A stretch of DNA of 21,482 bases from a virus, in IMG/VR virus record IMGVR_UViG_3300022074_000441, positions 1 through 21,482 of that record, one strand, 5' to 3'. The notes beneath the pieces are model-generated. The model made no database searches. It had not been told where the DNA came from and saw nothing but the letters and a program-made list of their open reading frames with translations. A program made the translations under genes and the position numbers. Of this stretch, positions 6,061 to 21,482 are shown in pieces. The stretch's first letter is position 1, and the number at the start of each line of letters is the position of its first letter.

Positions 6061-6722
6061 CAGACAGCCCTCATGTAGTCCTTACGATTGATCAGTTCGA
6101 TACGCATACGTCCCAGACCATCGACATAGTCCTTCAAGGCAAGCTGTGAAAACTGGACATCCGAGCGGAGCATATGCGTGTAGTATCGAGCGCGATTTAC
6201 GATTACGTCGTGGAAACGCTCTGGAATCGTAGGGGTGTCGGTATTAGCAGACATGTCGCTCACTGTCTTGTAATAATAATACCGGACCGTGTACGTAGAC
6301 ACGTCCGGCACGGGAGACAAACCAAGTTTTTGATCAGGCGTTTTATAAATAAACTCCGGTAGAGCGCGAACGCTTGTATCCGGATTCGTGTCAGCTTCGT
6401 TGCGACGTTCTAAGTATTCGTTAAACGAAAGATACTTCAATCGTTTTTCTGGGGTAGACGCGGACTCTTGTACAGTAAAACTATCATAATCAACAGTTTT
6501 TGCATTTGATTCTCGGGAATACTCCGCTGTTCCCGCAGTAGTCGTAAAAGATTGACTAACAACAGTAAACGGCCACTCAACTTCAGAGTTGATAATGTCG
6601 CGCTGTGCCTTATTGATGAAGTCTTTGACTGACGTTTGAATACCGCGTGTCGAAGCGACTGTGGTAATCTCCACTTCATTGATCTCTCGTAACACAGCAT
6701 TTATAAGTTCTAGGAATGTCAT
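6060..6722 (-). CDS. Tail tubular protein A-like head-tail adaptor
   Basis: 220 aa, close to T7 gp11 in length (about 196 aa). N-terminus MTFLELINAVLREINEVEI with an amphipathic helix, then VKDFINKAQRDIINSEVEWPF (split about 32-52), and a C-terminal helical part with PERFHDVIVNRARYYTHMLR (about 168-187) and LKDYVDGLGRMRIE. This is the layout of podovirus tail tube protein A, which forms the ring between portal and nozzle. It starts directly after the TAG of the 87-aa gene and its TGA overlaps the nozzle start, so the A and B proteins are translationally coupled. Confidence 0.85.
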   Translation of the reverse strand: MTFLELINAVLREINEVEITTVASTRGIQTSVKDFINKAQRDIINSEVEWPFTVVSQSFTTTAGTAEYSRESNAKTVDYDSFTVQESASTPEKRLKYLSFNEYLERRNEADTNPDTSVRALPEFIYKTPDQKLGLSPVPDVSTYTVRYYYYKTVSDMSANTDTPTIPERFHDVIVNRARYYTHMLRSDVQFSQLALKDYVDGLGRMRIELINRKDYMRAV

Positions 6723-6986
6723 CTATCGTACCTTGCGATAAGCGCGAGTCTTCTTTGCTACCTTCTTCGGTTGCCTCGCAACCTGTTTACCCTTCTTCGT
6801 GGCTTTACGCTTTGCGCGAGTCGTAGCAGCGTACTCCTTCGCGGAGAGCGCCTTAATAGCTTTTTCCGGTAGATATCTCTCCCCGGTAGCTTTCGAACCT
6901 TGTGTGGACGGTTTCCCACTCTTGGTACGCCACTTCTGTTTAGTCCATGCTTTCAGAGATCGTTGAGGTTTCTTCAACGCCATCAT
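6723..6986 (-). CDS. Basic small viral protein (KRSLKxWTKQ family type)
   Basis: 87 aa, strongly basic. Motifs: KKPQRSLKAWTKQKWRTKSG, then TGERYLPEKAIKALSAKEYA and TTRAKRKATKKGKQ. I recognise this as a recurring small protein in phages and some large viruses (I believe a Pfam DUF, number not certain), with no function known to me. The ATG at 6984-6986 (a second ATG follows at once) lies inside the preceding gene, giving a 47-nt out-of-frame overlap. The stop is directly followed by the ATG of protein A. Possible roles are DNA binding or an accessory to tail or head completion; neither is shown. Confidence 0.75.
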   Translation of the reverse strand: MMALKKPQRSLKAWTKQKWRTKSGKPSTQGSKATGERYLPEKAIKALSAKEYAATTRAKRKATKKGKQVARQPKKVAKKTRAYRKVR

Positions 6987-7191
6987 ACATCCCCATCGTT
7001 AGAGCAGCGAGCGCAGTCAATTTATCTTGCGCGTCACCCCATTTCGTAAGCGCCGTGTCCATCTCCTCCAGCAGACCCGGATGTTCACCGACGCCCACCG
7101 GCTTATCGAGATAAACTTGGAACACAAATTCTGCATCTGCTATCTCCGCCTGATACTTATGTCGCAACGCTTCTATCGCTAGTCTTTGCAT
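6940..7191 (-). CDS. Conserved small helical protein
   Basis: 83 aa from the ATG at 7189-7191: MQRLAIEALRHKYQAEIADA, then FQVYLDKPVGVGEHPGLLEE. Predicted mainly helical, acidic towards the end. A TTG at 7201-7203 would add four residues, but the ATG has GGGGG five nt upstream and is preferred. I associate the VGVGEHP phrase with short marine phage proteins of unknown role. It is the first gene after the promoter at 7212-7240 and its last 47 nt overlap the start of the basic 87-aa gene. Likely an accessory of the tail module by position only. Confidence 0.75.
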   Translation of the reverse strand: MQRLAIEALRHKYQAEIADAEFVFQVYLDKPVGVGEHPGLLEEMDTALTKWGDAQDKLTALAALTMGMYDGVEETSTISESMD

Positions 7192-7211
7192 GTCAACCCC
7201 CAAATATCCCT

Positions 7212-7240
7212 ATTATATCATAAAAACATAAGTTTTGCAA
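7212..7240 (-). promoter_or_regulatory. Sigma70-type extended -10 promoter for tail module
   Basis: Minus strand: perfect TATAAT -10 (7212-7217) preceded by TG one base before the hexamer (extended -10), 17-nt spacer, TTGCAA -35 (7235-7240, 4/6 match). Predicted start near 7205, only about 14 nt ahead of the ATG at 7191, with GGGGG as ribosome site. It sits in the 54-nt AT-rich gap after the 146-aa gene. Confidence 0.8.
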
Positions 7241-7245
7241 GTGAA

Positions 7246-7686
7246 TTATAACTTACCCTGATGGTAAGCCAGTAAGACAATAAAACCTACAAGCACCGAT
7301 AATAGTGCGGACAAGATTATTACGATAAGAGTCCAGTCTAACATTTTCTGACGACGTTTAGCTGCGGCCACTTCTGATTCTCGTCGTGCAATTCGAGCCT
7401 TTGCCTGAAAGCGCTGCCAGTCACCCCATAGTCCGGGGCGTCCAGCGTAAATCATAATCTGTTTCAGTTGCTCTTCTTGTTCGCGGAGCTTTTCAAGCGC
7501 CAGAAACTCTTCCAAGTCAGAGCCGCCAGCCCTACCTCCTTTTTTGTCAACCTTACGCTGTAAGTCTTCTTTCGCCCCGACGAACTGAGCAATAGCAGAA
7601 CCTGCTGATGCAATTTCTTTTCCGTTCTGAACACACTGTTTGATAACGGCAAATGCGGCGTTTGCTGCGGCTAATTCTGCTAACAT
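7246..7686 (-). CDS. Conserved protein with C-terminal membrane anchor
   Basis: 146 aa from the ATG at 7684-7686; the TTG codon just before is not needed. N-terminal Ala-rich helix (MLAELAAANAAFAVIKQCVQ), the phrase VGAKEDLQRKVDKKGGRAGG at about 36-55, a charged helical region LEEFLALEKLREQEEQLKQI and MIYAGRPGLWGDWQRF (about 79-94), then a basic stretch and one strong membrane helix near residues 118-141 (WTLIVIILSALLSVLVGFIV). Probably an inner-membrane protein with a long cytoplasmic or periplasmic coiled part. It overlaps the preceding signal-peptide gene as TGATG. The pair could be a spanin-like or lysis-accessory set, but no spanin motif is visible, so function is unassigned. Confidence 0.8.
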   Translation of the reverse strand: MLAELAAANAAFAVIKQCVQNGKEIASAGSAIAQFVGAKEDLQRKVDKKGGRAGGSDLEEFLALEKLREQEEQLKQIMIYAGRPGLWGDWQRFQAKARIARRESEVAAAKRRQKMLDWTLIVIILSALLSVLVGFIVLLAYHQGKL

Positions 7687-7877
7687 CAATACACCTGTAC
7701 ACTTTTATCGACTAATTTTGGTAGACAATACGCTGTTATCAGATTACCTTGTCTATGTAGAGTTTGTGCGAACCATATACATTCGTTGAGATCACGAAAG
7801 TACATGTCTTTACTGACAGTGCGCTGATCTTCTCCAGCTGTGCCGAGAAGCACAAACAGGAGAAACACGTGCTGCAT
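7686..7877 (-). CDS. Small secreted protein with signal peptide
   Basis: 63 aa. Residues 1-14 (MQHVFLLFVLLGTA) form a short hydrophobic signal-like segment; the remainder is soluble and contains MYFRDLNECIWFAQTLHRQG and ITAYCLPKLV, with Cys33 and Cys51 positioned to form a disulfide in the periplasm. No lipobox cysteine follows the hydrophobic part, so it is not an obvious o-spanin lipoprotein. Start and stop overlap both neighbours (TGATG on each side). It is probably periplasmic and may assist lysis given the nearby holin and lysozyme; unproven. Confidence 0.7.
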   Translation of the reverse strand: MQHVFLLFVLLGTAGEDQRTVSKDMYFRDLNECIWFAQTLHRQGNLITAYCLPKLVDKSVQVY

Positions 7878-8239
7878 CAGTTTTTGTAGCCGCCTCCAGC
7901 CTTTTTGTAGGCTGACGCGAGCATCTGAGCTTTACGCGCCGACCACTGCCCGGGGCGTCCGCCCTTGCCACCGGCCTTGATACGGTTGAAGATACGTTTT
8001 CTCATTCCGGGCTTAGTGTAGTTGCCAGCCTCATTAACTCGACTCTTGCCCTTCGCTTTAGACTTCGACGGTTTGCGAGTTTTTCCAGCCCTGCCACCCT
8101 TCTTGAGTTCTTCTGCTTCCTCGACGCCTTTAATTTTTCCGGCGTTGCGTGTCGCGTAGAAAACTTGCTCACCCTTACGACCCCCGTATGTGCGCTTCAT
8201 AGAAGACATGATTTTTTCACCCTTGTCTGTTAGAGGCAT
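7877..8239 (-). CDS. Basic two-part small protein (PLTxKGxKIM / GQWSARKAQ type)
   Basis: 120 aa, very basic. The N-terminal part MPLTDKGEKIMSSMKRTYGG with KGEQVFYATRNAGKIKGVEE, a Lys/Ser/Arg linker (about 47-68), then a second part NYTKPGMRKRIFNRIKAGGK and GRPGQWSARKAQMLASAYKK ending AGGGYKN. Both parts look to me like separately recurring small modules in marine phage proteins, so this gene may be a fusion of two. No membrane segment. Start overlaps the preceding stop as TGATG, its own stop overlaps the signal-peptide gene likewise. A nucleic-acid-binding or virion-internal role is plausible from charge only. Confidence 0.75.
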   Translation of the reverse strand: MPLTDKGEKIMSSMKRTYGGRKGEQVFYATRNAGKIKGVEEAEELKKGGRAGKTRKPSKSKAKGKSRVNEAGNYTKPGMRKRIFNRIKAGGKGGRPGQWSARKAQMLASAYKKAGGGYKN

Positions 8240-9992: not shown

Positions 9993-10247
9993 CTACGCCA
10001 TCTTTACGAGCTTGTAGCCCTTTGCTTTGGCAGCAGTACGGATTTGTGCAATAGTCATAGTCGGCTTCTTTGCTGCTTTTTTCTTGCCGCCTGTTGCACC
10101 GCCTTTTGCATAGCCTTTCGACTTCATAGCAGTACGACCGCCTTTATTCATCATCCTACGGCCACCGCGCATACCGCCTTTTGCCATGCCTTTGGCTTTC
10201 ATCTTGCCGCCGCGCTTCATGCCTTTACTCTTCATCATCTTCTTCAT
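9993..10247 (-). CDS. Lys/Gly/Met-rich hyperbasic protein
   Basis: 84 aa from the ATG at 10245-10247, chosen because GGAGAG lies 5 nt upstream; the frame stays open further upstream inside the 228-aa gene but without a ribosome site. By count 28 of 84 residues are Lys/Arg (22 K, 6 R), 12 are Met, and there are no Asp or Glu. The first 50 residues repeat K-G-M / K-G-G units (MKSKGMKRGGKMKAKGMAKG); the C-terminal third (TIAQIRTAAKAKGYKLVKMA) looks like a small folded helix-loop unit. Composition recalls protamine or histone-tail proteins, suggesting DNA compaction or neutralisation in the head. It overlaps the 228-aa gene by 23 nt. Confidence 0.75.
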   Translation of the reverse strand: MKKMMKSKGMKRGGKMKAKGMAKGGMRGGRRMMNKGGRTAMKSKGYAKGGATGGKKKAAKKPTMTIAQIRTAAKAKGYKLVKMA

Positions 10248-10911
10248 AATCGCTCTCCGCATAGAGGTTATCAAATACCCGTGCCGTATCGCTGACATAG
10301 TTCGGGTCTTGTTTTGAATGATGGACCCACTGACTAGGAGTGAAGTCCGGTGGGCCATCGCCCGTTACAAACCACGCCGGGTTCGTTACTCGTACTCTAT
10401 TGTTTGGTAAGGCAACGATGTTGCCTGTCCACTTGCCAGCATCCATGAGTTCGAGTACGTGACTCTGCTTGTGCTGCGCTGGATCGTCCGCTACTTCAGT
10501 GTCTGTGTAGTCTACAGTGAAGTAGTATTTAGCCGGATAAAACTCTCCGTCTATCTTTGCCAACCACGGGCAGGGCGTACCTCTGTTGAGAACAAATACT
10601 GAGTGGTGATGTGACTGACAGTCCCACGGCTGTGCCAGATAAGTAGGAATAGGTTCAGGCCATTCATCGAAGGGTGTATCTCCTACTAAAGCTGTGAGCG
10701 GCATGCGTGCCCACATCGCTCCGCCGTGTACGTTTTCTTCTTCGTCGCATCCAGTAAACAAGACTTGGAATGACAGGGTACGCATGGGCAGGGTAGTTAC
10801 CCCGATCACCATTGCATGTAAGAACTCACCGTGATATCTATCGTGACCTGTGGTGTATTCTCTTCGCACCCACGCCTTAAAGTACGGGATATTACTTGTG
10901 ATGTAATTCAT
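10225..10911 (-). CDS. Conserved protein of unknown function, 228 aa
   Basis: Soluble, aromatic- and His-rich protein beginning MNYITSNIPYFKAWVRREYT, with the segment RYHGEFLHAMVIGVTTLP (about 25-42), QPWDCQSHHHSVFVLNRG (about 94-111) and FYPAKYYFTVDYTD (about 123-136), then a very acidic end ESDYEEDDEE. The protein has many Trp, His and Cys residues but no enzyme motif I can name. I associate the type with marine podovirus genomes, in the neighbourhood of capsid genes. It is the first gene after the promoter at 10955-10983, with GAGGAG as the ribosome site inside a potential hairpin. A head-completion or structural role is possible; unassigned. Confidence 0.8.
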   Translation of the reverse strand: MNYITSNIPYFKAWVRREYTTGHDRYHGEFLHAMVIGVTTLPMRTLSFQVLFTGCDEEENVHGGAMWARMPLTALVGDTPFDEWPEPIPTYLAQPWDCQSHHHSVFVLNRGTPCPWLAKIDGEFYPAKYYFTVDYTDTEVADDPAQHKQSHVLELMDAGKWTGNIVALPNNRVRVTNPAWFVTGDGPPDFTPSQWVHHSKQDPNYVSDTARVFDNLYAESDYEEDDEE

Positions 10912-13487: not shown

Positions 13488-16451
13488 CTATCTGAGAATC
13501 ATCTGGACGCCATTCATCATGATGCGTCTAGGTTGAGTGTTGCCGCCTCTCGACATCTGACGACGGTCAGGAGTTGTCTGGCGCGTAATTGTAGGTGATC
13601 TTGGGATTGGCATGTTCGGAACCGGCATGTCTAGTTCAGTGGGACTCTTCATCTCAAACTCTTCCGGTATTTGAACTATGCCCCGGCTCTTAGCTTCCTC
13701 TGTCACTTCCCTAGTTTTTTCGGGTGTCATGAAGCCTTCTTCCGCAGAGAGTTTGGGGGGCTTTGCTTTTACAGGAGGTGTAGCCACTCCCTTGCCGCCC
13801 ACTTCTTCGAAGTAACTTCCTTCACGAATTATCGAGAAGCCCTTCTTGTACCGCTTAGAAAACTTCTGCCACTCCCCAAACTTTAACGATTCGTTAGGAC
13901 TGTGATGCGCTTTCATGATAGCTTCGATACCCGTCAGGCCGTGTTTCTTTTGTACTCTAGCCTCTTCATCGATCAGGGATGTCAAGTATATCTTGTTGAG
14001 GACAGGCATGAACTTTTCGTGCATTTCTCTAGGCAGCATACCCTTGCCTCGTGCGCCAAACTCAGGGACTTTTTTTGAAAATTTAGTAGGATTGCCATAC
14101 TCCCTGTTTACTTTTTCTCTTCCATCTTCTACGAGACTTGCAAGGTATGCTCGGAAAGACGAAGGAGCGTCTTTGAAAAATCCTTTTTCTTCTAGGTTTT
14201 CGATGGTCGAGTAGGTGATCTGGAACGGCCCGAAAGCACTAGAAGGTTGCTTCCCTCTCTTGGCAGCAGCAGGAGTTATTACTTTTTCTGTGAATATATA
14301 AGGGTTCTTCAGATCGTATGTGCCCTCTCCCTTCATGATGAGGACAGCTAATTCTTCAGGCTTCAGCCCAGCTATGTTAGGCACATCAATCGACTTTGCG
14401 TATTCGATCAGTTCTGCATCTGCGGCTCTATCACTTGCTTTGCGTTCCTCCGGCAGAGGCTCTGGCAACTCTTGTGGGAGTGCTGCTTTGGCTGCAGGCG
14501 AAGTTACGAACTCTCGTTCGGGTCCGGGTTCTGACGGCAAACCTCCTGCGGCTTTGCCTATGAAACCACCCGATGCAGCGAGGGCGCGAGGTTGACCGTT
14601 TTCTTCGATACGCTCGTCAACTTCTTTTTTGCCGCGATTGTTGATCTTTTCTAGACGATCATAGCCGATGATCTTTGCGATGCGAGGCGGGATGACAACC
14701 TCTCCGCGTGATACGGCGATGTCAACTTCTTCGTCTGACGGTACGTCGAAGCCTCGATCACCGGCAATCGCGTATGCTTCGCGGAGCATTTTTGCGACAT
14801 CAGCCTCGCCCATCTTTTCTACAGCCGGGGCGTTGATCACAAACGTCCCCTTTTTGACGCTCATGGGCTTATCGTCCGCTACGGTAGCTGCCTCCGAGAC
14901 TTGAGACGGAGGCCGCTCTACGAAGCCCATAGGCTCTTCAGAGGGCATTCCACCAGCAGCTAAGCCTACACGGCCACCGCTGGCGTAATCATCGGGATCA
15001 AGACCTTCCGTGTCGCTCACATTGTCAAAGGCAGATTCCTGCGGTCCACTAGGTCCGGACGAAGAAAGTGACGGGCCACTTTCATCGCTGTCATCATATC
15101 GATTTTCATCACTGTAAGACGAACGACGATCTGCAATTTCCTGTAGACGTTGTCTCTCTTGCTCTGCAGCGATACGTTCATAATTCCTCTGACGCTCTTG
15201 TGCCGCTGCTTGTGCCGCTGCCGTCCTTTCAGCGGCTCTTACCTCTCTGTCTAGGGCTTGTTTAGATTTAACTTCACCCTTGATGAATTGCTGAAAAGTC
15301 TGGCCGACGACTTTCTTTCCGAATAGACCGCGCCTTATGTTAGAAGAGTTGCGGTATTCTTCGAGCTTCGCGTTGTACCAGTCCGCTCCGTAGTTGACGC
15401 CGAGTTGTGAGTCGATAGCGTTGAAGTAGTCCTGTTTTTTCTGATTACGATACGAACCACGCTGACCGTAGGCATTGACCCAGTCACCGTTGACGTTCAT
15501 ACCGATGCCACCGTTTTTCCAGTGTTCCGTGCTGATGATGTCTTTGTCTCCGAAGTTGCGGCTAAAAGAACCATCGTCGTTCTTTGTTTCTTTTTGCCAC
15601 GCTCCCGGAATGAACCCCTGACTGATAAGCTCCAAGTTTTGAAGTTGTCGTATGTCTAATCCGCTTGTCTGTCCTGTGTAGCCCGAAGAGCCGGGACGAC
15701 GAGTAATATTAAATCCGTTGATCTTTCCGGCGAAGCCACCGTTGCCTACGCCACCATTCGCGGTTATAAAGGCAACATCCGCCTTCTGTCGTGACGCCGC
15801 GATGCCACCCCCTATCGCTGCAACTGCGCCGAAAGGTTGTGGAATCCCTGCAGCAAGTGCTGGGGGCAAACCTGTCGCAACAGTCTTTGAGGGATCGAGG
15901 GGGTCAGGGACAGTGGGAGCTTGCCCCGGAGTGCGTAGATCGAAGCTTCCGGCCAGCGAGTCGCGGACAGTGCGGAAGTAATTTCCGCTCATGTCTGGTG
16001 CGCCACCGAGTTCGGAAAGGTACGGACCGCCTAGATTGGCAACTTCGAAAGAAAACGGCTTATCCCTCACGCCACCTGTGAGGGAGTATTGACGAGGACC
16101 CATGTTGGAACCGGGGAGAAACGGGACGTCGTCGTCATCTCTAGGCTGCGTGAGAGCCGTGATGTCAACTACTTCTTCTTCTTCCTTGTCAGGATCATCA
16201 ATGACATCAACATCAACCCCGCCTGCGTCTAGTGTTTGATAGTAGGGGTTGAAGTATCCGGCTTGATACGCATCTACGCCGACTTTTTCAAATCCTGACG
16301 AAAGCGCTCCGTAACCACCCCTGTTCTCAAAGGTCATCTCACCTACTTTAGGACGCCTCTGACCGCTCGACGTGGAATCAATCGGCATAATTCCGGGCAA
16401 GTCACCCGGACCAATCACTCCGGAACCTAAAAGATTATCTTGTTCAGCCAT
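13488..16451 (-). CDS. Large virion protein with lysozyme/transglycosylase-like motif
   Basis: 987 aa. Residues 1-390 are Gly/Pro/Asp-rich with no family recognised; 395-445 is an Ala/Arg/Gln coiled coil; 446-490 is Ser/Asp-rich and disordered. Two related Gly motifs, ASGGRVGLAAGGMPSE (490-505) and ASGGFIGKAAGGLPSE (626-641), flank a conserved-looking domain with VKKGTFVINAPAVEKMG and SRGEVVIPPRIAKIIGYDRL. From about 680 to 880 lies a lysozyme-like region: E709 in IMKGEGTYD, then SSAFGPFQIT at 737-746, the arrangement of a catalytic Glu followed by the G-x-F/M-Q-I motif of transglycosylases. Such domains in virion proteins digest peptidoglycan during DNA entry. It sits between portal and scaffold, overlapping the 74-aa gene by 8 nt. 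An ejected internal protein is the likely role. Confidence 0.8.
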   Translation of the reverse strand: MAEQDNLLGSGVIGPGDLPGIMPIDSTSSGQRRPKVGEMTFENRGGYGALSSGFEKVGVDAYQAGYFNPYYQTLDAGGVDVDVIDDPDKEEEEVVDITALTQPRDDDDVPFLPGSNMGPRQYSLTGGVRDKPFSFEVANLGGPYLSELGGAPDMSGNYFRTVRDSLAGSFDLRTPGQAPTVPDPLDPSKTVATGLPPALAAGIPQPFGAVAAIGGGIAASRQKADVAFITANGGVGNGGFAGKINGFNITRRPGSSGYTGQTSGLDIRQLQNLELISQGFIPGAWQKETKNDDGSFSRNFGDKDIISTEHWKNGGIGMNVNGDWVNAYGQRGSYRNQKKQDYFNAIDSQLGVNYGADWYNAKLEEYRNSSNIRRGLFGKKVVGQTFQQFIKGEVKSKQALDREVRAAERTAAAQAAAQERQRNYERIAAEQERQRLQEIADRRSSYSDENRYDDSDESGPSLSSSGPSGPQESAFDNVSDTEGLDPDDYASGGRVGLAAGGMPSEEPMGFVERPPSQVSEAATVADDKPMSVKKGTFVINAPAVEKMGEADVAKMLREAYAIAGDRGFDVPSDEEVDIAVSRGEVVIPPRIAKIIGYDRLEKINNRGKKEVDERIEENGQPRALAASGGFIGKAAGGLPSEPGPEREFVTSPAAKAALPQELPEPLPEERKASDRAADAELIEYAKSIDVPNIAGLKPEELAVLIMKGEGTYDLKNPYIFTEKVITPAAAKRGKQPSSAFGPFQITYSTIENLEEKGFFKDAPSSFRAYLASLVEDGREKVNREYGNPTKFSKKVPEFGARGKGMLPREMHEKFMPVLNKIYLTSLIDEEARVQKKHGLTGIEAIMKAHHSPNESLKFGEWQKFSKRYKKGFSIIREGSYFEEVGGKGVATPPVKAKPPKLSAEEGFMTPEKTREVTEEAKSRGIVQIPEEFEMKSPTELDMPVPNMPIPRSPTITRQTTPDRRQMSRGGNTQPRRIMMNGVQMILR

Positions 16452-16668
16452 TATTTTTTACTACCGCCTCGTAGTTACTCTTCAATTTGAGGAGCGTTTC
16501 CAGTAAAACCAGCTTCCCCTGCGCTTGGCGCAGTTCCGATTCCGATTGTGCCGTTGCCAGACCCCGCACCGTCAGTTCCCGCAACTCCACTAGGTACTCC
16601 TCCATTCGGGGCCATTCCTTGTTGTTGAGGAGCGGGGCTAGCGTCTGGGCTTGCTGCTTGCTGAGCAT
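16444..16668 (-). CDS. Small coiled-coil protein overprinted on portal 3' end
   Basis: 74 aa, ATG at 16666-16668, overlapping the last 194 nt of the portal gene in another frame and the first 8 nt of the 987-aa gene. MLSKQQAQTLAPLLNNKEWP leads into MEEYLVELRELTVRGLATAQ and RQAQGKLVLLETLLKLKSNY, a continuous amphipathic helix pattern with regular Leu spacing. AAAGGA lies about 10 nt before the ATG. I recall similar short proteins (LAPLL.N.EW..., LR...L...) after portal genes of marine phages. The portal frame in the same DNA is low-complexity Pro/Gly/Ala sequence, so this frame appears to be the more constrained one. Function unknown; possibly virion assembly. Confidence 0.72.
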   Translation of the reverse strand: MLSKQQAQTLAPLLNNKEWPRMEEYLVELRELTVRGLATAQSESELRQAQGKLVLLETLLKLKSNYEAVVKNNG

Positions 16669-18583
16669 TTTGCATCATTCCTTTCAACATCTCTGAATAC
16701 AGTTGTGCCTCGTTCATATCGTTGACGAGACTGTCGGGATCGATGTCTTGCGTGATAGCAAGCTCTTTCATCAAGTTCGGAATCTTCACAAACGGAGCGA
16801 GCATCGGATTCGCCACAGTCTGCAGGAGAGCGGTCAGTCGCTGACTGCGAACCTCCTTTTGCATCACGGCTGCAACGCCGCGAGGTTTAATTTCTAAGTC
16901 ACCCTCTACATCTTCGACGTCTTCGTTGAACTGCATGTTCCACTGAAAGTACGCCTCACCCACCGGCTTCAAAAGATAGTCGTCGATGTTCTTGATCACC
17001 GTCTTCATAGACAGCCCTGCCGAGCCGAGTAGCATCGACAAGCCTGAAGCTGTGCGTCCTGTGCCAGTAACACCCGTCTGTCCGTGCATGATCGACGGGA
17101 TGCCCGTCTCTTCGTCGGCAAGCTGACGACTAATCTGATACATCTGAATGTTTTCAGGGGCCGTGTTCGGGAACTTGAGGCCGTTAATTGCCGTGCCAGT
17201 GACGCCCGACTGACGGCGGAATATCTTACCGGGGAAGATATCCATGTTCTGTCCGGGCACGAGGCTGGCTTCATCAACATCAAAGACAAGGTTGCCAGCA
17301 AGAGCGAGATTGTCGATTGCCATGCGAACGTGACCGTTCATCAGCATCTGCGCGTCTTCCATGTTCTCAGCTACGCCGACGCCCCACAACTGATAGGGGT
17401 TGATTTCGAACGGAAACGCTTGGAAGGGGATGCGTGCAGGAGTGAACGGATTAGCTACACAGCGGATAATCTCATTGCCGCAGAGCCAGATGTTTACTTG
17501 AACTTGCTCAAATCCACCGAGTTCTTCTGCACCCTCAAGACCTGCCTCTTGTGCCATCTTGGCATCAAGTGTACCCCAATACTCAAGCACCTCGAATCTA
17601 TTCTCTTGGTAATAAGCCTCAGTCTCGTCTTCACGAATCGTATCTTCATAATACTTGTCCGTGTAGTTTGCGCCTTTAGCGAGACAGTTTTCAATAGCCA
17701 TCGCGTCGAAGTACGGACGAGATACCAAACCTCGAAGCTGCTGCCGGTTCATTCTGTGACGTTGAATGACATACTCACAGTCTTCGATGCTGGTGCCAGA
17801 GGGGTCAGGGAAGAAGTCCCAAATAGAAACCGCTTCGATACGCGGCACGGTCTTTTCGTAAGGAGAGTATTTGCGACCGTCCTCCCCCCGTTCCCACTTG
17901 TGGATACGCTTATAGAAGTTGAACGGACCTTTTACGACGCCCGTTCCCAAAAGTGCTGACTCGAAAATTGCTTTTCTAAATACGTTGACAGCGTTCGTGT
18001 CAAGAAGCTGGTCGTGAATGCACTTCTCCATCCGGCGAGCCTGCTCTTTTGCTGGCTCGACTTGAGGCTCTCCCACCTTCGCTTTGCCCGGAGACAAGAC
18101 GCCCTCGAACTGCTGCCCGTAAGCACCCATGTTCGGCCCCTTAGACGCAGATAGCGCGCCGGGAAGCATCTCTCGTCCATCACCTTCGAATCCGTAGGGG
18201 TCTTGCTGTGCTTGATCCAGAGGTGTGGTTAGGTGTGCAAACTCCACGATACCTTCCGGCATCGGAGTGGATTCTACAACGATAGGAAAGCGCTTGTTAG
18301 CGAAAAGAATATCTACAATCTGCCCGTACGCCGCAAGAACTTTGGTCTTCGTAATCTTGATGAAGACCTTCGATCTTTCCGAATCACGGTACTGTGTCGT
18401 CGAATCGTAGATGCCACGAAAGTTTTTGTACGCTTGCAGCCAGCGCTGCTCGTATGCAAACCGTCCGTTTTCCGCGTCTTCGAACTTGCCGCGAATGTAG
18501 CCCGTCAGTCCGGGCATCTCCTCTGCGGGGTTTAGAAGAGGGATACCCGTATCATCTTCGGGCTGTAGATAGTCTTCTGACAT
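16475..18583 (-). CDS. Portal (head-tail connector) protein
   Basis: 702 aa. Motifs of podovirus portals: FAYEQRWLQAYKNFRGIYDS and FIKITKTKVLAAYGQIVDIL (about 42-90), DPSGTSIEDCEYVIQRHRMN in the clip/stem half, and the helix-rich part DEETGIPSIMHGQTGVTGTG followed by ASGLSMLLGSAGLSMKTVIK and YLLKPVGEAYFQWNMQFNED. Twelve copies form the DNA channel at the head vertex. The C-terminal about 65 residues are a Pro/Gly/Ala/Gln-rich tail that shares its DNA with the 74-aa gene. AGAGAG precedes the ATG. It is 9 nt after the 70-aa gene and ahead of the scaffold and capsid genes, as expected. Confidence 0.9.
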   Translation of the reverse strand: MSEDYLQPEDDTGIPLLNPAEEMPGLTGYIRGKFEDAENGRFAYEQRWLQAYKNFRGIYDSTTQYRDSERSKVFIKITKTKVLAAYGQIVDILFANKRFPIVVESTPMPEGIVEFAHLTTPLDQAQQDPYGFEGDGREMLPGALSASKGPNMGAYGQQFEGVLSPGKAKVGEPQVEPAKEQARRMEKCIHDQLLDTNAVNVFRKAIFESALLGTGVVKGPFNFYKRIHKWERGEDGRKYSPYEKTVPRIEAVSIWDFFPDPSGTSIEDCEYVIQRHRMNRQQLRGLVSRPYFDAMAIENCLAKGANYTDKYYEDTIREDETEAYYQENRFEVLEYWGTLDAKMAQEAGLEGAEELGGFEQVQVNIWLCGNEIIRCVANPFTPARIPFQAFPFEINPYQLWGVGVAENMEDAQMLMNGHVRMAIDNLALAGNLVFDVDEASLVPGQNMDIFPGKIFRRQSGVTGTAINGLKFPNTAPENIQMYQISRQLADEETGIPSIMHGQTGVTGTGRTASGLSMLLGSAGLSMKTVIKNIDDYLLKPVGEAYFQWNMQFNEDVEDVEGDLEIKPRGVAAVMQKEVRSQRLTALLQTVANPMLAPFVKIPNLMKELAITQDIDPDSLVNDMNEAQLYSEMLKGMMQNAQQAASPDASPAPQQQGMAPNGGVPSGVAGTDGAGSGNGTIGIGTAPSAGEAGFTGNAPQIEE

Positions 18584-18592
18584 ATCGCTCTC

Positions 18593-18805
18593 TTAGTAGT
18601 CGCGCTGTTCAGCCATGCTGAAAAGGGACGCCTCGACTGTAGCCTTAGTCTGCTTCTTCGGCATATCTTCCGTCAGCACGCCCTGTGCTGTCGTAGTGTC
18701 GAATTCCAGACCTTCACGGTACAGCTTGTCTGCGCCCATCTGATCGTCTACGGACGTCTTGTCCGAGTTCATAATGTACGCTTCGCCCATGTTCAGGTTT
18801 TGCAT
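18593..18805 (-). CDS. Small acidic protein upstream of portal
   Basis: 70 aa, MQNLNMGEAYIMNSDKTSVD, then QMGADKLYREGLEFDTTTAQ and KKQTKATVEASLFSMAEQRD. Hydrophilic, no membrane segment, mildly acidic. The start follows a strong GGAGGA ribosome site at 11 nt after the 866-aa gene. I do not recognise a family. Its fixed place between the recombinase-like gene and the portal suggests a head or packaging accessory. Confidence 0.7.
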   Translation of the reverse strand: MQNLNMGEAYIMNSDKTSVDDQMGADKLYREGLEFDTTTAQGVLTEDMPKKQTKATVEASLFSMAEQRDY

Positions 18806-18816
18806 TTCTTCCTCCG

Positions 18817-21417
18817 TTAGGGTGACATTGTTAGAAAGCTATCATCTGGTGCGGGAGCAGCTTTCTTGTTCTCCCGTGGTGAATCCGGGAACATCGACAT
18901 ACGTGTTCCGGCCTCAATATCTACTTGTTCTGACGCCTCTCGCTGTTCGTACATTTCACGAGCAGTCATAGGAAGGGGGCTAAAGACAGCTTCAGCCACT
19001 TCTCCTGCGTACTGTGCTTGTTTTTTAGCGGGTACGGGTTGGAAACTCTCTGGGTATGTTTCTTCGAACATTCCGCCAGTTTCGGGGGGCATACCAAAAG
19101 CCGGTTCAGGCTTCGACAGGCCGTAAATACCAGACCCGGTAAGAGCGGCTAGACCTGTCATTTCTCCTACGACGGGTAGGTTTATTGACTTCAAAACCTT
19201 TCCGGCCTTACCCAAAAGTCCGGGCTTTGCATCCGGCGCATCTTCTGCAGGGGTCTTCGGATCGACCCTAACTCCGAGCCTTCTCCACTTTTCTTTTTGT
19301 GCCTCATCCATCTCTGGAGATAGATCGAGGTTACCAGCTAGCTTCGCTTTTTCGTCGTCTCTGATTCTTTTCTTTTCAGCTTGATCACGAACTTGTTTGC
19401 GTATCGCTTCTTCGTCGATTTTATCGACTTCTTTCTCTAGTTCGATACGCCTCTTCCTCTTTTCAAGAGTGGCGATCCTGTAGCCTTCAGCCCTGTCTTC
19501 ACTAGCAGCAATCTGTTCGAGATTGAATGCTTCTGTTACACGCGGATCAGCGTCAGGAGCTTGTCCTTTAGGATACGAGCCTTCTCCGTGATCAGGGCTG
19601 ATGCCAGCTATGAACTTGTCGCTGTTCGGAATGGCCTCTACGAATTCAGGGTCTGTCAAGAGGTCAGCACTGACGACGATATTCTTTGTCTTATTTCCGA
19701 TCTGAAGATTTAGGTTAGCGCCTAGTTGAGCAGTGCTTGGGGCACCCATATATCCAGAAATGGCACCGACGACCCGCTTGTTCGCTGCATCTATTCGGCG
19801 CTTTCGAGCGGCTTCAGAGACGTATCCTGCCGCCTCGTTAGCATTCGCACGTCCGTTTAGGAAGTTTACATCGCCTTCTTCTAAGCCCCCGACGTCTGTC
19901 AGCAGAGTCTCGTGCATATTGCGGAGCTTGTAGACAGTGAAGTCTTCGGGAGTAATAGAACCATCAGGGCGAATAAATGTGACCTGATCGAGGCGGTCCT
20001 TCAAGACAATGTTAAGCGCTCTCTGGTTCTTTGCTTTGTTCGGGAAGATTTTACCATCCGGCCCGATTTTATCCCCTTGAATACGAATGGCTTCATTAAT
20101 TACATCAACAGCGAGAGGGTTGAGAACGATAATTTTATTCTTTTTCGACTTCGCATCGTAGAACGTCATCAAGCCGTTCTTTTTGTCGTAGCCCTTTACC
20201 GTGAAGCTTCCGATGTTTTCTGGTCGCAAGCCGCCGAGCAGGTGTCCACCAAGCTGCAGACGAGCTTCGTATGGTATCTCTTTGTCTACAAGGATGCCCT
20301 GAAGTTGTTGATAGACGTCGGGCGGAAACTGTGTTGGTGTCTTTCGTCCGCGTTTGAAACGCCAGCCCGACTCCGTTTCGAAGTCTTCTGTGCCGAGATA
20401 GTCTTTAACGGCGGTGGCAACATATCCCTGACCGTAGCCAGCACCGGACCACATCGTGTTCAGGCGGGTGATCAGACCGGATGAGCGAGAGCGGTATTGA
20501 GTTGCTTCGATGTCAGCATCACGGAAAGGGCTGTCGGAGATCACATCTCCCATGACCTGTCCGATGTCTATGTCACCGACAATCATGTCGAGAACAGGCG
20601 TCTTCGTCTTCGGGTCGATGATTTCTTCTAGTTGACGAACTTGGGACGTGACAGCTTTAGAAGTGTTCGCGCTTTTCTGACTGGCCTCATACGCAAAGTA
20701 TTCGCGCAGGGTCATCTTTTTCTTTTCGTCAGCGGTTACGCGGACCCGCCCACTTTCGCCAGCTTCACCGCCCCCTGACATCGCTTGTCGGAACTTAGGG
20801 CTTTCAGGGTTTAGCTCTTCCACGCGATCTAACCTCTTTACGTACTCAGAAAACTCCTCCACCTCCATCTCAGAGGGAGTGGCTTCCATTATCTTGTCTC
20901 GCTCTCGGCGGTAAAATCCCTTCTCTCTCTCTGCAAAGCCCGGAAACACTTCGTCGTCACCCGGACGAAGAATCTGATCGAGGACCATATCATCTTTAGG
21001 AGAAACACGTTCGTCGAAAAGTTGTTCGTTAATTTCACGTTCTCTTTTACGAGAGACGAGACCCTCTGCCGTCGTGTCTTCGGTCTTGTAGAGAGGAGCG
21101 ACATCTCGGATCATCCGACCGAAATCTTCGTCTGTGAACCTCTTTCCTGCGTAGGGATTTGGCACCTTTTCACGCTCAAAGGGGTCATCGCTTTCAACCG
21201 TGGGCTTAGGCAGTCCAACATTACCGGCGTAGAAAAATCTCTGCTTTTCCCGGTAAAAGTAACGGGCCATTTCCTTCTGATTTGAAGTGTAGCCTTCGTA
21301 CTGTTTTCCAACGATACGTCGTAGCTCTTTGTCAAGCTCTCTGATACCACGAGACTCTTCGAACTCTTCAGTGCCGCGCTTTTGCTGCGCGATTGGTTGT
21401 GGGTTACGACGGGCCAT
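18817..21417 (-). CDS. 866-aa virion-region protein with embedded tyrosine-recombinase domain
   Basis: Residues 1-230 are charged and helical with no family recognised. Residues about 235-345 resemble the SAM-like core-binding domain of tyrosine recombinases (MTLREYFAYEASQKSANTSK to RSSGLITRLNTMWSGAGY). Residues about 363-540 resemble the catalytic domain: R398 in GGLRPENI, K423 in YDAKSKKNK, R499 in YKLRNMHETLL, and Y532 in NGRANANEAAGYVSE. The two histidine positions are Y496 and R523. Residues 640-705 form a coiled coil (LEKRKRRIELEKEVDKIDEE); 747-768 (LPVVGEMTGLAALTGSGIYG) is a Gly-rich possible membrane segment; the end is Pro-rich. The gene begins right at the stop of the preceding gene (TAAATG) and heads the structural block. 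It could be a virion-carried recombinase, a structural protein built on that fold, or an ejection protein. Confidence 0.75.
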   Translation of the reverse strand: MARRNPQPIAQQKRGTEEFEESRGIRELDKELRRIVGKQYEGYTSNQKEMARYFYREKQRFFYAGNVGLPKPTVESDDPFEREKVPNPYAGKRFTDEDFGRMIRDVAPLYKTEDTTAEGLVSRKREREINEQLFDERVSPKDDMVLDQILRPGDDEVFPGFAEREKGFYRRERDKIMEATPSEMEVEEFSEYVKRLDRVEELNPESPKFRQAMSGGGEAGESGRVRVTADEKKKMTLREYFAYEASQKSANTSKAVTSQVRQLEEIIDPKTKTPVLDMIVGDIDIGQVMGDVISDSPFRDADIEATQYRSRSSGLITRLNTMWSGAGYGQGYVATAVKDYLGTEDFETESGWRFKRGRKTPTQFPPDVYQQLQGILVDKEIPYEARLQLGGHLLGGLRPENIGSFTVKGYDKKNGLMTFYDAKSKKNKIIVLNPLAVDVINEAIRIQGDKIGPDGKIFPNKAKNQRALNIVLKDRLDQVTFIRPDGSITPEDFTVYKLRNMHETLLTDVGGLEEGDVNFLNGRANANEAAGYVSEAARKRRIDAANKRVVGAISGYMGAPSTAQLGANLNLQIGNKTKNIVVSADLLTDPEFVEAIPNSDKFIAGISPDHGEGSYPKGQAPDADPRVTEAFNLEQIAASEDRAEGYRIATLEKRKRRIELEKEVDKIDEEAIRKQVRDQAEKKRIRDDEKAKLAGNLDLSPEMDEAQKEKWRRLGVRVDPKTPAEDAPDAKPGLLGKAGKVLKSINLPVVGEMTGLAALTGSGIYGLSKPEPAFGMPPETGGMFEETYPESFQPVPAKKQAQYAGEVAEAVFSPLPMTAREMYEQREASEQVDIEAGTRMSMFPDSPRENKKAAPAPDDSFLTMSP

Positions 21418-21482
21418 TTAGTATCCGAATACTTCGTCTTGAACTTTATAAACGTGGTTCTTGATTGCGCTGAGTTGTTGGT
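21418..21482 (-). CDS. 3' end of an upstream gene
   Basis: The last 20 codons of a minus-strand gene are visible, ending NHVYKVQDEVFGY and a TAA at 21418-21420 directly next to the ATG of the 866-aa gene. By gene order in podoviruses this could be a terminase large subunit, but the fragment is too short to identify and the product is left open. Confidence 0.6.
   Translation of the reverse strand, partial: QQLSAIKNHVYKVQDEVFGY

What the first reader, a model, noticed from the sequence alone, without database searches (positions are those of the whole stretch)
19790..20720. Tyrosine recombinase fold hidden inside a large protein of the structural gene block
Seen: in the 866-aa protein, R398, K423, R499 and Y532 are spaced like lambda Int R212, K235, R311 and Y342 (R to K 25 vs 23; R to R 101 vs 99; last His-box position to Tyr exactly 9 in both). 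The HxxR histidine is Y496 and the GH-box histidine is R523, within YKLRNMHE and LNGRANANEAAGY. A plausible core-binding domain precedes it. Known: phage integrases are normally 300-400 aa stand-alone genes outside the late structural module. Inference: this could be a virion-packaged recombinase that acts on entering DNA, a protein acting on genome ends or concatemers, or a fold co-opted for structure. Long extra arms and a possible membrane segment suggest ejection with the DNA.
Basis: partly seen in the sequence, partly recalled or inferred. Interest (0 to 1): 0.9.

Follow-up and report, generated by a model that had tools for sequence, protein, structure and literature searches.

The report
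Tyrosine recombinase in phage packaging operon
A group of uncultured marine phages carries, between the genes for its DNA-packaging motor and its portal, a very fast-diverging enzyme of the cut-and-rejoin (integrase) type whose tail shares a short tag with neighbouring virion-type proteins, which suggests, but does not prove, that the enzyme works with or inside the virus particle.

Summary
The 866-aa protein (18817-21417, minus) contains a core-binding plus catalytic tyrosine-recombinase fold: AlphaFold2 is confident for residues ~230-690 and all best-ranked PDB matches belong to that fold. Every contig of this marine HMO-2011-like clade with enough sequence upstream of the portal has a homologue at the same place: TerL > recombinase > 70-aa ORF > portal. 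Core dN/dS is 0.04-0.2. The HxxR histidine is missing in all members; the GH-box position is R or H. Contigs of 37-47 kb show no other integrase. Catalytic modules and C-terminal tails are swapped between phages, but most tails end in a [GSN]F[LIVM] motif that recurs in the hypervariable protein downstream of the portal (and, as GF[TS], in the portal tail) and is rare in other genes. Best reading: a late-expressed, probably active recombinase tethered to the head, either packaged and ejected or acting during packaging. Virion packaging, target site and reaction are not shown. The membrane segment is not supported.

The parts
18817..21417 (-). 866-aa large tyrosine recombinase gene; ATG immediately follows the TerL stop codon
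   Evidence: ORF; TerL C-terminus QQLSAIKNHVYKVQDEVFGY* abuts the ATG; family
20353..20730 (-). Core-binding (SAM-like) domain, about residues 230-355; most homologues start near here
   Evidence: AF2 pLDDT 66-96 by ten-residue block; aligned with core-binding domains of lambda Int, XerA, Tn1549 Int and Cre from model residue ~226-236
19738..20340 (-). Catalytic domain, about residues 360-560
   Evidence: Pfam Phage_integrase E 0.008 on residues 367-467
20224..20226 (-). Catalytic Arg I, R398 (57/57)
20140..20142 (-).
19921..19923 (-). Catalytic Arg II, R499 (57/57); the HxxR His position is Y496
19849..19851 (-). GH-box position, R523 (R 36, H 20, K 1 of 57)
19822..19824 (-). Nucleophile Tyr, Y532 (57/57)
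18820..19560 (-). C-terminal extension, residues 620-866: long helix, then a disordered tail that is exchanged between phages
18820..18840 (-). C-terminal motif SFLTMSP (residues 860-866; F861 conserved in 54/57)
18593..18805 (-). Conserved 70-aa ORF between recombinase and portal; so no attP-like gap
16475..18583 (-). Portal protein, SU10/HMO-2011 type; C-terminal GEAGFTGN motif
13488..16451 (-). 987-aa hypervariable protein between portal and scaffold with several GF[LIVM] motifs; homologue in L011 carries a Cell Wall Hydrolase domain
21418..21482 (-). 3' end of TerL

Best explanation
The protein is an active, lineage-specific tyrosine recombinase made late from the packaging/structural operon and tethered to the phage head through a variable tail ending in a short [GSN]F[LIVM] motif. 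Shown by sequence and predicted fold: the recombinase fold, invariant catalytic Arg/Arg/Tyr, fixed position TerL > recombinase > 70-aa ORF > portal, no other integrase found in large contigs, module swapping, and a motif shared with the downstream hypervariable protein and, as GF[TS], with the portal tail. Inferred: that it cleaves DNA through Y532, that it is expressed late, that the motif is a head or packaging signal, and that the enzyme acts on the phage's own genome. The form I think most likely is packaged and ejected with the DNA to circularise or otherwise resolve the incoming genome; nearly as likely is resolution of concatemers or branched DNA at packaging. (About 0.95 that it is a tyrosine recombinase by descent, about 0.85 that it is catalytically active, 0.45 for the head-tethered reading as a whole.)
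For: Fold: AF2 pLDDT 80-97 over nearly all of residues 366-620; Foldseek prob 1.00 to lambda Int, XerA, Tn1549 Int and Cre; VIA-align Z about 13 to 3nkh, XerA, Tn1549 Int and the lambda Int core; the L074 homologue gives the same families. Family: 23/57 members hit Phage_integrase at E<0.01, two records pass Pfam's cut-off in this same gene, and 27/57 hit phrog_1 integrase, best E 3e-15. Catalysis kept: R, R, Y 57/57 and K 49/57; dN/dS 0.04-0.2 for the core of most close pairs. Place: 76 of 80 portal loci have it; in the other four the contig ends within about 520 bp upstream of the portal. Head link: C-terminal [GSN]F[LIVM] in 84% of recombinases vs 6% shuffled and in 36% of downstream proteins vs 3%, at most 2% elsewhere; by tail clusters 17/22 (shuffled mean 1.1, max 5) and 8/25 (mean 1.0, max 5) versus 1/33 and 1/32 for other genes.
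Against: No virion proteome, DNA target or enzymatic activity is known. The HxxR His is absent throughout and the GH His is mostly Arg, so the chemistry may differ. The GF motif could be an assembly or chaperone tag rather than a packaging tag; the strict motif is not in the portal (GFT/GFS there). Late expression is inferred from operon position only.
Confidence: 0.45

Rival explanations
1. It is an ordinary lysogeny integrase that has replaced the one beside the replication module and now sits in the packaging operon; swapping of catalytic modules reflects changes of attB.
For: HMO-2011, CRP-2, CRP-3 and ctYwJ313 carry one conventional integrase elsewhere in the genome and CRP-3 integrates (PMC9038755); contigs of this clade show only this gene or no detectable match, so the two look mutually exclusive. 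Integrase exchange between phages is common (general knowledge).
Against: No prophage: the portal scan of 84,980 species genomes gave only two MAG contigs at 52-53% identity, without the recombinase, and 385 genomes of one class gave none closer. No adjacent attP-like gap: both sides are coding. No HTH_3 repressor or HTH_17 excisionase above cut-off, although CRP-3 lacks them too. A long tail with a head-type motif is not usual for integrases.
Confidence: 0.22
2. It acts in the producing cell at packaging, like baculovirus VLF-1: it resolves concatemers, dimers or branched DNA beside TerL and portal, and may stay at the portal. (This is the second variant of the best explanation, told apart here.)
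For: The gene is between TerL and portal and abuts the TerL stop; the portal tail carries a related GF[ST] motif, conserved even in phages without the recombinase. VLF-1 is an integrase-family protein at nucleocapsid ends, proposed to process the genome (PMC6669607).
Against: No interaction data; extreme divergence and module swapping are not expected of an enzyme with only conserved internal partners and site.
Confidence: 0.25
3. The fold is co-opted as a non-catalytic structural or regulatory protein, as with recombinase-derived phage regulators MrpR, YopR and SroF.
For: Those proteins appear among the fold matches; the HxxR His is lost.
Against: R, R and Y are invariant in 57/57 and Lys in 49/57, and the core is under purifying selection.
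Confidence: 0.05

Closest known systems
Phage tyrosine integrases (Pfam PF00589, PHROG 1; lambda Int, HP1 Int, Brujita Int)
   Same: Core-binding plus catalytic domain, R/K/R/Y set, profile hits of many members
   Different: About 530-870 aa with a swapped C-terminal extension; in the packaging operon; no attP-like gap beside it; HxxR His absent; GH His mostly Arg
HMO-2011-type conventional integrase (CRP-3 gp02 and its counterparts in HMO-2011 and CRP-2)
   Same: One tyrosine recombinase per genome in related phages
   Different: Those are frames of 300-390 aa upstream of the replication module (PMC9038755) and were not detected in this clade's large contigs
Baculovirus VLF-1
   Same: Integrase-family protein that is a virion component and linked to DNA processing (PMC6669607)
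   Different: Virion presence is shown for VLF-1 and only inferred here; an analogy, not a family assignment
Phage P1 Cre-loxP (from memory)
   Same: Recombinase that circularises incoming phage DNA
   Different: Cre is made in the cell and is small; no lox-like site was found here
Xer-type recombinases of virulent phage Lacusarx (PMC5648845)
   Same: Tyrosine recombinases in a phage that tested as virulent
   Different: Different genome regions; not described as large tailed proteins

Membership tests
Tyrosine recombinase superfamily | Core-binding domain plus catalytic fold | tested here: met
   (predicted structures)
Tyrosine recombinase superfamily | Arg I, Lys, Arg II and Tyr conserved | tested here: met
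   57/57, 49/57, 57/57, 57/57
Tyrosine recombinase superfamily | His of HxxR (usual but not universal, general knowledge) | tested here: not met
   0/57 His
Tyrosine recombinase superfamily | His/Trp at the GH-box position (usual but not universal, general knowledge) | tested here: not met
   Arg in the window protein and in 36/57; His in 20/57
Phage integrase family (PF00589 curated cut-off) | Score above 27.1 bits | tested here: not met
   Window protein 16.4 bits; two syntenic homologues, 35 and 31.9 bits, pass
Temperate-phage integrase (functional) | attP next to int | tested here: inconclusive
   Both flanks are coding; an att site elsewhere is not excluded
Temperate-phage integrase (functional) | Integrated prophages | tested here: inconclusive
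   None found; hosts unknown and marine genomes sparse
Virion-packaged recombinase (VLF-1-like role) | Protein present in virions | not testable with these tools
   Only indirect: operon position and shared motif
Telomere resolvase (protelomerase) | Hairpin genome ends or palindromic telomere site | not tested
   Contigs are fragments with unknown ends

The most novel reading that the evidence does not exclude
A tyrosine recombinase is loaded into the phage head by a C-terminal cargo motif shared with a co-packaged ejection-type protein, enters the cell with the DNA and recombines the genome at once; its catalytic specificity module is swapped like a cassette between phages.
Probability: 0.33. 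Interest if true: 0.85.

Novelty: new variant of a known kind. Interest (0 to 1): 0.62.

Why it matters
HMO-2011-type phages are dominant in the sea, and subgroups IV to X were reported to lack any identifiable lysogeny gene (PMC9038755). An integrase-fold enzyme hidden in the packaging operon of a large uncultured clade would be missed by that criterion and could change how their life cycle is read. If packaged, it would be, as far as I know, the first phage tyrosine recombinase delivered with the virion, and the GF motif would be a testable head-targeting tag.

Tried and rejected
attP beside the gene: the ~230 bp gap before the portal is a conserved 70-aa ORF. Lox-like inverted repeats: a TAGATTAGTTTCTA hairpin upstream of TerL in several contigs looks like an intrinsic terminator (T-run after the stem). 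tRNA-based att sites: no tRNA in the window, one in eight large contigs. Close relatives of the window protein by peptide patterns or tblastn: none in viral contigs or phage records; three divergent members also found nothing in phage records; the route through the portal worked. Defence-system models: no hit. phmmer against PDB sequences: no hit. TerL seemed split (311-aa ORFs), but a single 465-469 aa match in large contigs suggests only a non-ATG start. Literature searches for a virion-packaged phage tyrosine recombinase found none.

Full report
What the window is. The record is a 21,482-base virus fragment. Its portal is 45-51% identical to those of HMO-2011-type podoviruses (HMO-2011, HTVC033P, HTVC103P, CRP phages), and it has an SU10-type adaptor, a major head protein and tail genes. 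The long genes all lie on the minus strand. The last 65 bases encode the end of TerL (..KVQDEVFGY*), whose stop codon is followed at once by the ATG of the 866-aa ORF.

The observation. Residues are as stated. On its own the window protein gives only a weak Pfam hit (Phage_integrase, E 0.008, residues 367-467) and no PHROG integrase hit. The decisive data are its homologues. A portal search gave 80 contigs (portal 75-93% identical); in 76 the ORF upstream of the 70-aa ORF and portal belongs to one linked family, and the other four contigs end within ~520 bp upstream of the portal. In 57 aligned members only R398, R499 and Y532 are invariant, with F458 and F861 at 90% or more. The catalytic Lys is most likely K426 (49/57). 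The HxxR histidine is missing in all; the GH position is R or H. 23/57 hit Phage_integrase at E<0.01, 27/57 hit phrog_1 integrase, and two records exceed Pfam's cut-off in this gene.

Fold. AF2 of the window protein with its family alignment is confident from ~230 to ~690. The top Foldseek and VIA-align matches are tyrosine recombinases or fold relatives (topoisomerase IB, recombinase-derived regulators), covering model residues 226-589; named BFVD matches are viral integrases or Tyr-recombinase-domain proteins. A homologue modelled separately agrees. Residues 1-225 and the tail after about 720 are of low confidence and their fold was not tested.

Selection and modularity. Most close pairs give dN/dS 0.04-0.2 in the core. 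Fifteen pairs share tails (>60% identity) with catalytic domains under 35% identical, and 21 pairs show the reverse (catalytic domain >75%, tail under 35%); the window protein itself shares its catalytic domain with L002 (78%, tail 19%) and its tail with L006 (68%, catalytic domain 29%). So modules are exchanged at a fixed locus while catalytic residues are kept.

Distribution. In the related isolates inspected (HMO-2011, HTVC033P, HTVC115P, HTVC103P, CRP-2, CRP-13, phiM6, CHOED, ctYwJ313, Slicky01) no gene of this kind is annotated between TerL and portal, and two MAG contigs with 52-53% portal identity have little room for one (about 0.6 kb). Conversely, the canonical integrase of HMO-2011, CRP-2, CRP-3 and ctYwJ313 is not detected in this clade's 37-47 kb contigs, although primase, helicase and polymerase are present in all but one of the eight examined. 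In several large contigs the packaging-operon recombinase itself scores below the Pfam search threshold, so a very divergent second enzyme cannot be fully excluded, and the contigs are not complete genomes.

Link to the head. The C-terminal 25 residues contain [GSN]F[LIVM] in 84% of recombinases (6% in shuffles) and in 36% of the hypervariable proteins between portal and scaffold (3%), but in at most 2% of other genes. After collapsing related tails, 17/22 and 8/25 clusters carry it, versus 1/33 and 1/32 for other genes; shuffles of the first two sets never exceeded 5. I chose the motif after looking at the recombinase tails, so the independent test is its enrichment in the downstream protein and its rarity elsewhere. 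The portal ends in GEAGFTGN or similar, also in phages without the recombinase. One downstream protein carries a Cell Wall Hydrolase domain above Pfam's cut-off (L011), as expected of an entry protein. This is indirect support for a head or virion role; it is an inference.

Mechanism. Most likely a catalytically active recombinase that acts on phage DNA with or inside the particle. Two variants remain open: packaged and ejected (circularisation or resolution on entry) and action at packaging. Plain lysogenic integration is the main rival and is weakened, not excluded, by the lack of prophages and of an adjacent attP-like gap. No target site was found.

Comparison. It is a member of the tyrosine recombinase superfamily by fold and by R/K/R/Y; it departs from the consensus at both histidine positions, in size, in tail and in genomic place. 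It may work like VLF-1 of baculoviruses (PMC6669607), but that is an analogy. PMC9038755 describes the conventional integrase of HMO-2011-type phages upstream of the replication module and none in subgroups IV to X; the passages I read do not mention this gene, and supplementary files were not searched.

Noticed in passing
L034:4497-4582, L056:4839-4926, L005:4602-4690, L002:3332-3405 and others: A ~90-bp conserved noncoding element (..GCAnGGGnCACC..CCCCCnGCATTTGCTAGCAATnnCGnCAT..TTTT..GTTA), once per contig 1-2 kb upstream of TerL in the clade; not detected in the HMO-2011, CRP-2 or HTVC stretches held. Candidate cos/pac, origin or recombination site.
   Followed up: partly
window 13488-16451 and its counterparts in related loci: The protein between portal and scaffold is hypervariable with unrelated C-termini and repeated GF motifs; the L011 copy has a Cell Wall Hydrolase domain, and the window copy has a transglycosylase-like stretch (IMKGEGTYD..SSAFGPFQIT) by eye only.
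   Followed up: partly
window 18593-18805: 70-aa ORF between recombinase and portal found in 192 fetched loci (overlapping fetches counted) and easier to align than the recombinase; at best a marginal hit in HTVC033P.
   Followed up: partly
L034:4192, L049:4839, L056:4538, L025:4931, L078:898: Terminator-like hairpins upstream of TerL share a loop TAGATTAGTTTCTA while the outer stem varies in a compensated way.
   Followed up: partly
L002:5989-6426 and 6143-7888: The nearest relative's recombinase is broken into two overlapping frames: a real frameshift or an assembly error.
   Followed up: no
window 10225-10911: Protein matching PHROG 3704 (ferredoxin, auxiliary metabolic) within the structural block.
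   Followed up: no
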